Assembly (NCBI GenBank): GCA_022825855.1
Contig: JAJDWB010000007.1
Coordinates: 186,001-250,000 of the forward strand
DNA length: 64,000 nt
Direction of reading: 5' to 3'
Origin: Dehalococcoidia bacterium
GTDB lineage: Bacteria > Chloroflexota > Dehalococcoidia > Bin125
The position numbers and the translations under genes were made by a program. Positions 1,307 through 64,000 of the stretch are shown here, one piece after another. Each line of letters starts with the position of its first letter. Position 1 is the stretch's first letter. The notes beneath the pieces are model-generated. The model was not told where the DNA came from, did no database searches, and saw only the letters and a list, made by a program, of their open reading frames with translations.

Positions 1307-2431
1307 ATGACGTTCGACTCCGTCGACACACTCCAGCGCACTCTCGCCGATCAAGTGTTTCACTACGCCGCTGACAGGAAGAAGGCCGCCGGCCGAGCGC
1401 TAGGTACGCTCGTTGAGATCATCGCCTTTCACACCCTCGTGGCATGGAACCTACGCGATCATGTTGTCATCGAACGTCGGATAGCTGAGTTTGGGAACCC
1501 CAGCATCCTGCACAACGTCGAATTCTCACTGCATCCAGTACAGGGTCGTCAGAACTTCTCGGCTGCTGCTCTCACACTACCAATCACTCCAGCCAAGATA
1601 AGGAAACAGTTCCCTTCCTTAGACATAGACTCCAAGAAGTCAATACCACTACTGAGCAGTGATGGCGTAAAGCGGAACGCCGCTGTCTTGAACGAAGATG
1701 ACTCCGGCCTCACTGTGGCAAACTTAGATGTCCCTGAAACTCCCGGCGCTCGATTGGCTATCTCCCACCTGGACTCCCACCCTTTCGCGATGGTTGAATG
1801 CAAACGCGTTGGCGTAGAGGAAGGTCAGCGGAAGGGACCTCAGACAATAGAGAAGGCAAAGCAGGGTGCGTACGTCGCGAACACTGTCTCTTCACTACAG
1901 CGAGTACGCCTACGAAGCGGCAGCTATCAGGGCATGTTGGAACTGGACGATGGCACCTTTCTGACCGGGCCCTATGAGGAAGTGCGGCGGCAGATCATTG
2001 ATGATGAAAAACAGTCAGGCAGCACGGGCTTCATTCTGACCGTTGGCGTTGTTAGTAATCACGGCAACTGGTTCACCTCCGACTCTCACAACAAAGAGTT
2101 GAAAGTACTAGCCCAGTCGTATGACTGGCTCTTGTTTCTCACGGATGCTGGCTTAGCACAGTTCATAGAGCGCGTGCTCCTGAGTCCAGCTCCTGAGCTA
2201 ATGCCGGCGCGGACTGCCTTTCTGCAGAGCTACCCAGCGAAACCGGGAGCGAACCGCTTTACCAAAGTGAGAATGGCAGCAGACGCGGATGAGGCATTGA
2301 AGAGTTACTTCAAGAGCCATTCCGCCGAAGTTGAATCCTGGTACAATGTGATTTCGCCGAGCAACACATCTCTTGATGTGCTGCGCAACGACCTCCGCAA
2401 GCTCGCTGGAGCGAATGTCCAGGAAGGATAG
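1307..2431 (+). CDS. Putative type II restriction endonuclease (possibly ApaLI-like)
   Basis: The 374-residue product has a candidate PD-(D/E)XK nuclease core: hydrophobic strand and E-x-K at 160-167 (PFAMVECK), followed by the charged stretch GVEEGQRKGPQTIEKAKQG. An N-terminal helix has a conserved-looking Glu (TLVEIIAFH, residues 35-42). The overall pattern and the KGPQTIEKAKQGAYV segment resemble what I recall of ApaLI-type enzymes, but I cannot confirm this. The stop is 5 bp before the start of a DNA adenine methyltransferase, the usual arrangement of a restriction-modification operon. The start ATG follows AGGGAC. Base composition is visibly less GC-rich than the chromosome to the right, suggesting acquisition. 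Nuclease call is fairly secure from context; cut site is unknown. Confidence 0.65.
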   Translation: MTFDSVDTLQRTLADQVFHYAADRKKAAGRALGTLVEIIAFHTLVAWNLRDHVVIERRIAEFGNPSILHNVEFSLHPVQGRQNFSAAALTLPITPAKIRKQFPSLDIDSKKSIPLLSSDGVKRNAAVLNEDDSGLTVANLDVPETPGARLAISHLDSHPFAMVECKRVGVEEGQRKGPQTIEKAKQGAYVANTVSSLQRVRLRSGSYQGMLELDDGTFLTGPYEEVRRQIIDDEKQSGSTGFILTVGVVSNHGNWFTSDSHNKELKVLAQSYDWLLFLTDAGLAQFIERVLLSPAPELMPARTAFLQSYPAKPGANRFTKVRMAADADEALKSYFKSHSAEVESWYNVISPSNTSLDVLRNDLRKLAGANVQEG

Positions 2432-2436
2432 AGCAA

Positions 2437-3018
2437 GTGACCGCCGGTCGCACGAACTCCAAGGCCTTGAGTCAAAACTGGTGCACGCCGCCCAAGTATG
2501 TTGAGGCGATTAGAGACTTCTTTGGCGGGTCAATCGAGCTAGACCCTTGCTCCAATGATCACTCGATAGTGCGGGCGAGTAACGAATATGCGCTACCCGA
2601 AACTGATGGGCTGCAGGCGTCTTGGGACTTCGGGACCATTTTCGTCAATCCACCCTACGGCAAGGACAGAAGCCGCGGAACGTCAATAAGGGATTGGTTG
2701 AAGCGGTGCCACGACGCCAATCTAGCTTTTGGGTCCGAAGTACTGGCCCTAGTTCCCGTGGCGACCAACACGAGGCACTGGAAGATCCATGTTTTCGGGG
2801 GAGCAACGGCCGTGGCGTTCCTTTACGATACGAGACTTCAGTTCTTGGTGAACGGTGAGGCTGGAGGGAAAGGCGCGCCCATGTCCTGCGCAATGGTCTA
2901 TTGGGGACAGTGTTATGAGAGGTTTGAGAGGATCTTCCTTGAGTTCGGGGCCGTGGTTGACCTAAGGCATTTGCACGGGCGCCTGGTGGGGAAGAATGGT
3001 GCAGGGGCATTGCTCTAG
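2437..3018 (+). CDS. DNA N6-adenine methyltransferase, Dam/phage type
   Basis: A 193-residue protein starting at GTG 2437 with AGGAAGG directly upstream. It carries QNWCTPP (13-19), the DPCSN motif (36-40) and the catalytic NPPYG motif (71-75), followed by ALVPVATNTRHW. These match the short phage-type Dam family of amino-methyltransferases, which transfer a methyl group from S-adenosylmethionine to N6 of adenine. It is the cognate partner of the nuclease gene that ends 5 bp upstream, and would protect host DNA. The 3' end overlaps the tail of the convergent truncated nuclease gene (2962-3375), placing the island boundary here. Recognition sequence cannot be read from the sequence. Confidence 0.85.
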   Translation: MTAGRTNSKALSQNWCTPPKYVEAIRDFFGGSIELDPCSNDHSIVRASNEYALPETDGLQASWDFGTIFVNPPYGKDRSRGTSIRDWLKRCHDANLAFGSEVLALVPVATNTRHWKIHVFGGATAVAFLYDTRLQFLVNGEAGGKGAPMSCAMVYWGQCYERFERIFLEFGAVVDLRHLHGRLVGKNGAGALL

Positions 3019-3409: not shown

Positions 3410-3443
3410 CCCTCACCCTAGCCCTCTCCCTCGGGGAGAGGGG
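3410..3443. repeat. Palindromic repeat, copy A
   Basis: First copy of a repeat reading CCCTCACCCTAGCCC then TCTCCCTCGGGGAGAGGG. The second half forms a stem (CTCTCCC/GGGAGAG) with a tiny loop. It is preceded by GGAGGGC, a head unit that is also found in tandem at 45231-45305. It lies between the truncated nuclease gene and the 3632 gene. Confidence 0.85.
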
Positions 3444-3574
3444 ACCGGACAGCAGATTGTCCCCGTAGTAGAGCGTCCGGTTGGCGAAGCTCGGCGTCGG
3501 CATTCCACCAGTGCAGCCCACATGCTCTCAGGCAACACTCGGCCTGCCATCCCGCCGCCGACCCGCATGAGACC

Positions 3575-3601
3575 TTGATACCATCAGAACACTCGTACTA
3601 T
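3575..3601 (+). promoter_or_regulatory. Possible sigma70-type promoter for the 3632 gene
   Basis: TTGATA at 3575-3580 and TACTAT at 3596-3601 with a 15-bp spacer, about 30 bp upstream of the AAAGGAG/ATG of the next gene. The spacer is shorter than the ideal 17 bp, so this is only a candidate. Confidence 0.25.
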
Positions 3602-3631
3602 CACGCGCCAGAGCGCAAAGGAGTCGCCCCA

Positions 3632-4009
3632 ATGCCCAACCCCTACCACTACCGAGCCCACATCGACCGACTCTGGCGCCAGGCCAACAGCGACATCCCC
3701 GCCTACAAGCAGCTCAAAGCCCTCAAGACACTCGTCCGCGAGATGTTCCCGCCCAACCCCAACGCCGCCCGCAACAACCGCCTCTACCACACCACCGACC
3801 CCTACGAAGTCGCCCGCCACCTCCTCCGAGATCTCCACGACCGCCCCTCCCGACTCCCTCTCCCCTTGGGAGAGGGTTGGGGTGAGGGTTCCCCCGCACA
3901 CGAGGTGGGAGCCGGCTCCCTCCGGCCCCCTCTCCCTCTGGGAGAGGGTTGGGGTGAGGGTTCCCCCACCGAAGACGAACCACCCGAAGAAGACGACGAC
4001 CCGTTGTAA
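3632..4009 (+). CDS. Small unknown protein with two in-frame palindromic-repeat inserts
   Basis: I start the gene at ATG 3632 because AAAGGAG lies 9 bp upstream; the longer frame has no such site. The 125-residue product has a basic, helical N-terminal part of about 75 residues (HYRAHIDRLWRQA, YKQLKALKTLVREMF, EVARHLLRDLHDR) that I do not recognise. The C-terminal third is made largely of two copies of a chromosomal palindromic repeat read in frame, each giving PLPLGEGWGEGSP, and ends in an acidic tail (TEDEPPEEDDD). Each repeat is 33 bp, so each adds 11 codons without a frameshift. The gene has the same AAAGGAG-type leader as the HTH gene at 45345-46226, which is also flanked by this repeat. 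Function unknown. Confidence 0.6.
   Translation: MPNPYHYRAHIDRLWRQANSDIPAYKQLKALKTLVREMFPPNPNAARNNRLYHTTDPYEVARHLLRDLHDRPSRLPLPLGEGWGEGSPAHEVGAGSLRPPLPLGEGWGEGSPTEDEPPEEDDDPL
3856..3888. repeat. Palindromic repeat, copy B, in frame inside a CDS
   Basis: Reverse-orientation copy: CCCTCTCCCCTTGGGAGAGGG followed immediately by TTGGGGTGAGGG. Exactly 33 bp, it is read within the 3632 gene as PLPLGEGWGEG. Confidence 0.9.
3928..3960. repeat. Palindromic repeat, copy C, in frame inside a CDS
   Basis: Second reverse-orientation copy, 72 bp (24 codons) after copy B and nearly identical to it. It is read in the same frame of the 3632 gene and gives the same peptide. Confidence 0.9.
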
Positions 4010-45305: not shown

Positions 45306-45338
45306 CCCTCACCCTAACCCTCTCCCTCGGGGAGAGGG
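45306..45338. repeat. Palindromic repeat, copy D
   Basis: CCCTCACCCTAACCC followed by TCTCCCTCGGGGAGAGGG, the same 33-bp unit as copy A. It ends 6 bp before the stop codon of the convergent HTH gene, so its hairpin could also act as a transcription terminator for that gene. Confidence 0.9.
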
Positions 45339-46320: not shown

Positions 46321-46353
46321 CCCTCACCCCAGCCCTCTCCCAGAGGGAGAGGG
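46321..46353. repeat. Palindromic repeat, copy E
   Basis: CCCTCACCCCAGCCC followed by TCTCCCAGAGGGAGAGGG, same orientation as copy D and 33 bp long. With copy D it brackets the HTH gene. Confidence 0.9.
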
Positions 46354-62872: not shown

Positions 62873-64000
62873 TCAGTGCCAGTCGTGGGCGCTGGGCATG
62901 CGAATGTCGGCGCCGATCGCGTCGATCCGTTCGGCCACGATGTTGGTCGTCCCGTCCCAGCGGTCGATACGTCCCTGCAGCAGGATGAGCTGGTTCGAGA
63001 GCGCCCGGCGGCAGCGAGCGAAGACTTTGGGCCAGACGATCGACTGCACGTCGCCGGTTTCGTCCTCGATTGTGACGAAGACGGTGCCGTCCTGGCCGCG
63101 CGGATGCTGGCGCGCGATCGGCCAGCCGGCGATGCGGATGCGGGCGCCATCCTCGCAGTCGTAGACCTGAGCGGTCGTGAGGACGCCCGCGTCCAGGGTG
63201 GGGCGGATGAACTCCATCACGTGACCGCGGGGGTAGATGCCGAGCGTCCGGTACTCGCCAACCATTTTCTCGTAGTCGGTGAAGTCGTCGAAGCTCGGCG
63301 GCGCTTCCGCGCCGACGACCGGAAAGGCGCGCTGGCCCGATCGCGCGGGGCGGATCGAGAGTCCTGCTTCCCACAGCGCCTCACGGCGGTTGGGCGTGAC
63401 GGCGTCGAACGCGCCTGCCTCAATCAGCGATCGCACCGCCTGCGGCTTGAGCCCGGTGCGGCGGACCAGTTCGCCCGCGTCGGCGTAGGGCCCGCGCGCC
63501 TCGCGTTCCGCGACGATCAGCCGCGCCGACTCGGGTCCGATGTCCTTGATCATGCCCAGGCCGAGGCGCCCCCCCTCTGCCTGCGGCATCTCCCCCCGCG
63601 GAGCGGGGGGAGAAGGGAAGGCAGGCGCGGCCCGGACCTCGCTGTGGTTGACGCAGGGGTTGAGGAAGCGCACGCCGAACTTGCGGGCGTCCTCCTTGAG
63701 CGTCTCGACCGGATAGAAGCCCATCGGCTGGTTGTTGATCAGCGTGACGAAGAACTCGAGCGGGTGGTAGCGCTTGAGCCAGGCGGCCTGGTAGGCGGTG
63801 ATCGCGAAGGCGTGCGAGTGCGATTCGGGGAACATGTAATGGCCGTTGATCTTGCCGAAGATCTTCTCGGCGATGTCGGGCGGCACGCCGTTCGCCCGCG
63901 CGCCTTCGAGGAAGCGCTCGCGGTGCATGGCGATCAGATGATCGTTGTTGGCCCGCGCGAAGGCGCGGCGAACCTCGTCCGCCTCGGCCGCGGTCATGCC
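62873..64000 (-). CDS. dnaE2: DnaE2/ImuC-type error-prone DNA polymerase, C-terminal part
   Basis: The frame enters from the right edge (G-M-T-A-A) and covers about 375 residues of the C-terminal part of a C-family polymerase: FPESHSHAFAITAYQAAWLKRYHPLEFFVTLINNQPMGFYPVETL (fingers), LGLGMIKDIGPESARLIVAERE (HhH region), and an OB-fold tail ending RMPSAHDWH. The end RxPSxHDxH and the lack of a beta-clamp region fit DnaE2/ImuC. An insertion of about 20 residues between NHSEVRA and LGLG contains the GC palindrome at 63590-63612. The gene is partial. Confidence 0.88.
   Translation of the reverse strand, partial: GMTAAEADEVRRAFARANNDHLIAMHRERFLEGARANGVPPDIAEKIFGKINGHYMFPESHSHAFAITAYQAAWLKRYHPLEFFVTLINNQPMGFYPVETLKEDARKFGVRFLNPCVNHSEVRAAPAFPSPPAPRGEMPQAEGGRLGLGMIKDIGPESARLIVAEREARGPYADAGELVRRTGLKPQAVRSLIEAGAFDAVTPNRREALWEAGLSIRPARSGQRAFPVVGAEAPPSFDDFTDYEKMVGEYRTLGIYPRGHVMEFIRPTLDAGVLTTAQVYDCEDGARIRIAGWPIARQHPRGQDGTVFVTIEDETGDVQSIVWPKVFARCRRALSNQLILLQGRIDRWDGTTNIVAERIDAIGADIRMPSAHDWH
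63590..63612. repeat. GC palindrome, in frame inside dnaE2
   Basis: Perfect 10-bp stem CTCCCCCCGC/GCGGGGGGAG with a GGA loop, lying within the dnaE2 coding frame. The flanking bases (CTGCCTGC on the left, GGCAGGCG on the right) extend the inverted symmetry. It produces the peptide PSPPAPRGEMPQAEGG. Confidence 0.85.

What the first reader, a model, noticed from the sequence alone, without database searches (positions are those of the whole stretch)
3856..3960. A 33-bp palindromic repeat lies twice in frame inside a gene
Copies B and C of a genome-dispersed repeat (also at 3410, 45306 and 46321) sit inside the 3632 gene. Each is exactly 33 bp, keeps the frame, and is read as PLPLGEGWGEG. Rickettsia palindromic elements are the known precedent for coding palindromes. 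I infer an independent family here that tolerates insertion in one reading frame because that frame has no stop.
Basis: partly seen in the sequence, partly recalled or inferred. Interest (0 to 1): 0.7.

Follow-up and report, generated by a model that had tools for sequence, protein, structure and literature searches.

The report
Known BoxC repeat inside protein linkers
A short repeat scattered through many bacterial genomes (BoxC), normally found between genes, sits twice in frame in the floppy linker of a small multi-copy protein of a Chloroflexota bacterium, and the same linker in sister genes carries other unrelated repeats, so these genomes keep building protein linkers out of their own repetitive DNA.

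Summary
Two 33-bp copies (3856-3888, 3928-3960) lie in frame in the 3632 gene, and the repeat is dispersed: about 90 copies in this genome.

The repeat is not a new family. It is BoxC (also PIT, TM, TM-ECO), a palindrome plus a third mirror arm, known to fold as an intrastrand triplex in vitro. It fits the published consensus, and a 33-mer present in this genome is identical in over 1,400 E. coli chromosomes, where BoxC is reported as intergenic.

Here 79 of 90 copies are intergenic, 4 overlap gene ends and 7 are inside genes. Five of the 7 are in the 3632 family, a genus-restricted paralogue family: a four-helix domain, a disordered linker and a conserved acidic tail. 66 of 75 members carry at least one of six repeat classes in that linker. 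Near-identical paralogues carry different repeats, and one repeat is nested inside others. The other two genic copies sit between the domains of double CaiB proteins, in other frames. BoxC also ends MetF and CTP synthase.

So it behaves like Rickettsia palindromic elements, but coding palindromic repeats were already known. New here: BoxC in coding sequence, and a protein family whose linker repeatedly takes up repeats.

The parts
3632..4009 (+). Host gene: 125-aa member of a genus-restricted paralogue family (four-helix domain, residues 4-70; disordered linker; acidic tail EEDDDPL)
   Evidence: 72 of 77 members keep the acidic tail in frame
3856..3888 (+). BoxC/TM copy 1 (loops CTT and TTG), read LPLPLGEGWGEG
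3928..3960 (+). BoxC/TM copy 2 (loops TCT and TTG), read PPLPLGEGWGEG; 39 bp after copy 1, same orientation
3843..3967 (+). Extent of the 53-nt direct repeat (3843-3895 and 3915-3967), showing that the repeated unit is longer than the 33-bp core
3410..3442 (-). BoxC/TM copy, intergenic (loop CTA)
45306..45338 (-). BoxC/TM copy, intergenic (loop TTA)
46321..46353 (-). BoxC/TM copy, intergenic (loop CTG)
3574..3626 (+). Promoter region of the host gene: GATACCATCAGAACACTCGTAC (-10-like box and LexA-like GAAC-N4-GTNC) followed by an AAAGGAG ribosome site
   Evidence: the motif is upstream of 55 of 75 members and of lexA in this genome

Best explanation
The 33-mers are BoxC/TM elements, a known dispersed short repeat whose mobiliser is unknown. 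They arise or insert across the genome and persist mostly between genes. Inside a gene a copy survives only where 33 bp in a stop-free frame lands in a disordered linker, an interdomain linker or a C-terminus. The 3632 family is the main such place: its linker between a four-helix domain and a conserved acidic tail has repeatedly gained, swapped and lost BoxC and at least five other repeat classes. Shown: identity with BoxC, dispersal, frame retention, occupied and empty orthologous sites, turnover of inserts on the tree of the core. Inferred: that copies arrive by insertion through an unknown agent, and that spread among paralogues includes gene conversion.
For: The repeat fits the BoxC consensus, and a 33/33 identical copy is in at least 1,441 E. 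coli genomes. Own genome: 79 intergenic, 4 edge and 7 genic of 90 copies, while the window is 89% coding; 5 of the 7 genic copies are in this family. Loop 2 that would give a stop (TTA/CTA): 46 of 79 intergenic but 0 of 7 genic and 0 of 23 family copies, Fisher 9e-8 for the family. 66 of 75 family members carry a recognised repeat; BoxC presence needs at least 20 changes on the core tree; L068 (BoxC) and L071 (class B) are sisters. The 24-bp class D repeat is nested in BoxC, class B and class E copies. MetF, CTP synthase and double CaiB orthologues show empty, BoxC and other occupied states. AlphaFold2: residues 71-125 have low confidence and no secondary structure.
Against: Genes in this genome were called with a simple codon model written here. 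The genomes are draft metagenome bins. No target-site duplication or mobilising enzyme was found. No expression data exist. All family copies share one frame and orientation, so the number of independent insertions in the family is uncertain.
Confidence: 0.78

Rival explanations
1. One ancestral BoxC insertion in the 3632 family spread by gene duplication and conversion; there is no recurrent insertion into the linker.
For: All real family copies are in the same orientation and frame; cores are more alike within a genome than between syntenic loci.
Against: Different repeat classes replace each other in near-identical paralogues and at syntenic loci; the same turnover is seen in the double CaiB linker and the CTP synthase and MetF genes.
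Confidence: 0.3
2. The repeat-derived linker is useful: the peptides serve as a spacer of suitable composition, and the linker is selected to take up repeats (a diversification device, possibly under SOS control).
For: Acidic tail kept in frame in 72 of 77 members despite 30 linker lengths; LexA-like box upstream of 55 of 75 members and of lexA.
Against: Nine of 75 members have no recognised repeat; no function is known; purifying selection on the core is only moderate by a crude estimate (median dN/dS 0.63).
Confidence: 0.15
3. The ORF tail is a non-coding repeat array that happens to be open.
For: The repeats are open in several frames by composition.
Against: A conserved acidic C-terminus follows the repeats in frame in 72 of 77 members; stop-giving loop variants are missing inside the genes.
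Confidence: 0.04

Closest known systems
BoxC / PIT / TM (TM-ECO) intrastrand-triplex repeat (Holder et al. 2015, PMC4666352)
   Same: Same three-arm sequence, 3-nt second loop, loop types TTA and CTG/CCG, inverted pairs; 33/33 identity with E. coli copies
   Different: In E. coli K-12 it is reported as always intergenic; here it also lies within and at the ends of genes
Rickettsia palindromic elements (RPE; reviewed in PMC2229807)
   Same: Dispersed palindromic repeats read in frame in conserved proteins, tolerated at permissive sites
   Different: RPEs are 105-146 bp; here 33 bp of BoxC sequence, several repeat classes share the same landing sites, and one paralogue family is the main recipient
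GTAG/CGTC-tagged REPs inside ORFs (Di Nocera et al. 2013, PMC3733652)
   Same: Short palindromes within ORFs or giving the terminal stop codon, in many species
   Different: No GTAG/CGTC tag was noticed in the element; no RAYT transposase match in the own genome and in 11 of the 12 congeners searched, and one marginal match in the other
Enterobacterial RU/ERIC elements with ORFs (Delihas 2007, PMC2759123)
   Same: Small mobile repeats fused in frame to genes
   Different: Longer (103-168 bp) MITE-like elements of other sequence

Membership tests
BoxC / TM-ECO | Consensus CCCTCNCCC-N3-6-GGGNGAGGG-N3-GGGNGAGGG | tested here: met
   Both copies match exactly; 90 relaxed copies in the genome
BoxC / TM-ECO | Sequence identity with E. 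coli copies | tested here: met
   33/33 identical in over 1,400 E. coli genomes, no feature annotated under the ten listed matches
BoxC / TM-ECO | Folds as an intrastrand triplex | not testable with these tools
   Shown in vitro for E. coli oligonucleotides (PMC4666352); not measured here
BoxC / TM-ECO | Intergenic location (a reported property of the E. coli K-12 copies, not part of the sequence definition) | tested here: not met
   79 of 90 intergenic, but 7 inside genes and 4 at gene ends
Rickettsia palindromic elements | 105-146 bp length of the RPE families | tested here: not met
   33-bp core of BoxC sequence
Rickettsia palindromic elements | In-frame insertion in conserved protein genes with empty orthologues | tested here: met
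   MetF and CTP synthase C-termini (BoxC), MetF loop (class-B-like)
REP mobilised by RAYT | RAYT (Y1 transposase) gene in the genome | tested here: not met
   PF01797: no match in the own genome and 11 of 12 congeners searched; one marginal match in G009, over the cut-off only when its neighbours in the frame are added

The most novel reading that the evidence does not exclude
The 3632 family is a dedicated acceptor of genomic repeats: a LexA-controlled protein with an SSB-like acidic tail whose disordered linker is continually rebuilt from dispersed triplex-type repeats, so that the repeats act as raw material for linker diversification.
Probability: 0.12. Interest if true: 0.8.

Novelty: new variant of a known kind. 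Interest (0 to 1): 0.52.

Why it matters
BoxC has been known since the 1990s with no mobiliser, no settled function and, in E. coli, no place in proteins. A genus in which it and other repeats come and go inside protein linkers, with sister species that lack strict BoxC copies (G003, G011, G013) as controls, makes the question of how BoxC spreads and what proteins tolerate directly testable by comparing genomes.

Tried and rejected
RAYT transposase as mobiliser: no match in the own genome, one marginal match in G009. A link between family copy number and BoxC number: G008 has 23 strict BoxC and no family match, G011 has family members and no strict BoxC. The family in viral contigs: none found. 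Pfam and NCBIfam give the window protein no family above cut-off, and only one or two of 35 members have any PHROGs or Pfam match. A structure comparison gives no match above Z 3.7, which does not show that the fold is new. My first fuzzy count of BoxC (118 hits) counted reverse half-matches and was replaced.

Full report
What was checked. The two copies are real, 33 bp each, in the same phase of the 3632-4009 ORF. The 21-base core has 6 matches in the window, 5 of them exact, against 0.14 expected. The element has three arms, CCCTCTCCC, GGGAGAGGG and GGGTGAGGG, each separated by 3 nt. This is the published BoxC/PIT/TM motif (CCCTCNCCCN3-6GGGNGAGGGN3GGGNGAGGG; PMC4666352). A variant present here (CCCTCTCCCTGAGGGAGAGGGTTAGGGTGAGGG) is identical over 33 bases in at least 1,441 E. 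coli genomes, and no feature is annotated under the ten listed matches. The strict motif occurs in 58 of 301 Chloroflexota genomes sampled. So it is not an independent family. The relatives of the 3632 gene come from Dehalococcoidia/Chloroflexota metagenome bins; that these are sponge symbionts is my reading of the bin names, not a tool result.

Where copies lie. I read the stretches around the copies in this genome and called genes with a codon-usage model trained on the window. Of 90 copies 79 are intergenic, 4 overlap gene ends and 7 are inside genes, while the window is 89% coding. Five of the 7 lie in three members of the 3632 family. The other two lie between the two CoA-transferase III domains of ~805-aa proteins, in two other reading frames (PSPQPSPSGRGG and PLSLRERVRVRA). 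First-loop length is 3 in 88 of 90 copies, so 33 bp is inherent. The second loop is TTA or CTA in 46 of 79 intergenic copies, but in none of 7 genic and none of 23 family matches (Fisher 9e-8 for the family). In the family's frame those loops give TAG. At the four gene ends it is always TTA; in two of them BoxC supplies the last residues and the stop, of CTP synthase (...NLKSPLPEGEG) and MetF (...GWPPSPLPEGEG), where relatives end differently, mostly with short ends such as GATNSSH and GWPAD. Some CTP synthase orthologues carry other repeat-like tails.

Frames. For loops CTG and TTG five of six frames are open; for TTA three are. One open frame therefore does not explain the pattern. In the family 22 of 23 matches are on the + strand in frame 2; the 23rd is a reverse match that I take for a chance hit in a CCCTCT-rich linker.

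The host family. Matches over the conserved domain are confined to the genus in the 61 genomes searched, up to 22 in one genome. It is a four-helix domain (pLDDT mostly 85-97), then a tail that includes both repeats with pLDDT below 60, ending in EEDDDPL. 72 of 77 members keep the acidic tail in frame through 30 different linker lengths (28-66 aa). Of 75 members 22 carry BoxC and 66 carry at least one of six classes: A BoxC; B CTCCCCCC..GGGGGGAG-hairpin-GAGGGGGG (SPPASSGGRCLVETEGG); C GCCCCCGCGCAGGCGGGGGC (VAPAQAGA); D 24-bp AGCCTGCCCCGCACTTGATGCGGG (ACPALDAG); E CCTCCCCC..GGGGGAGG-hairpin-GGAGGGGG; F (VPAPERGP). BoxC and all five other classes were also found between genes, D and E rarely. 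Class D appears in the middle of BoxC, B and E copies, in frame. BoxC presence needs at least 20 changes on the tree of the core; the sisters L068 and L071 in this genome carry BoxC twice and class B. Syntenic loci L141, L169 and L198 carry A, B and F.

Other genes show the same thing. The double CaiB linker carries BoxC in this genome, class B or class-B-like repeats in G011, G010, G014 and G009, class E in G002, G006 and G012 (a weaker form in G001), remnants in G005 and none recognised in G007 and G008. The MetF loop is short in nine genomes and holds a class-B-like insert in G000, G001 and G011 and in a broken G004 copy, with a further insert inside it in G000. A class B copy is in frame inside a DnaE-like protein at 63569-63619 of the window.

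Structure of the other classes. In class B the hairpin that replaces the second loop has a variable pair that is complementary in 43 of 43 copies, with all four pair types. Classes A, B and E thus share the pyrimidine/purine/mirror-purine order of a class II triplex motif; that B and E fold so is inference.

Regulation of the host gene. GAACN4GTNC lies within 70 bp upstream of 55 of 75 members against about 0.08 per kb elsewhere, and GAACATCAGTAC lies upstream of lexA in this genome. LexA control is therefore likely but untested. The match upstream of recA is weak.

Mechanism. Best reading: BoxC and the other classes disperse by an unknown agent and are kept in proteins only in disordered or terminal positions. 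No RAYT was found in this genome, with one marginal match in G009. Spread within the family probably includes conversion between paralogues, since cores are often more alike within genomes than at syntenic loci.

Known precedents. Rickettsia palindromic elements and Delihas's repeat units (PMC2229807, PMC2759123), and REPs inside ORFs or supplying stops (PMC3733652), already establish coding palindromic repeats. The new parts are BoxC in coding sequence and a family whose linker serially takes up several repeat classes. The literature held here is open-access only, so earlier reports may have been missed.

Noticed in passing
window 63569-63619 (-): A class B repeat (CTCCCCCCGCTCCGCGGGGGGAGATGCCGCAGGCAGAGGGGGG) lies in frame inside a DnaE-like protein (PF14579), read FPSPPAPRGEMPQAEGG.
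   Followed up: partly
L133-L205, L068-L071: The 3632 family has a conserved LexA-like box and -10 upstream, and a T-run followed by a conserved GC-rich stretch downstream; similarity between non-syntenic paralogues covers little more than this unit, so the gene may move as a compact unit.
   Followed up: partly
class B copies, own genome and relatives: Hairpin in the third-strand loop of class B repeats with 43 of 43 complementary pairs of four types.
   Followed up: partly
G000 C13:53185, 89410, 111128, 291230, 292269; C22:91949: BoxC occurs as inverted pairs 20-61 bp apart, mostly a TTA-type with another loop type, as in the paired copies of the E. coli table.
   Followed up: no
window 2437-3018 and 1307-2431 (+): A Dam-like adenine methyltransferase gene (PF05869) next to a gene without a Pfam match just upstream; possibly a restriction-modification locus.
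   Followed up: no
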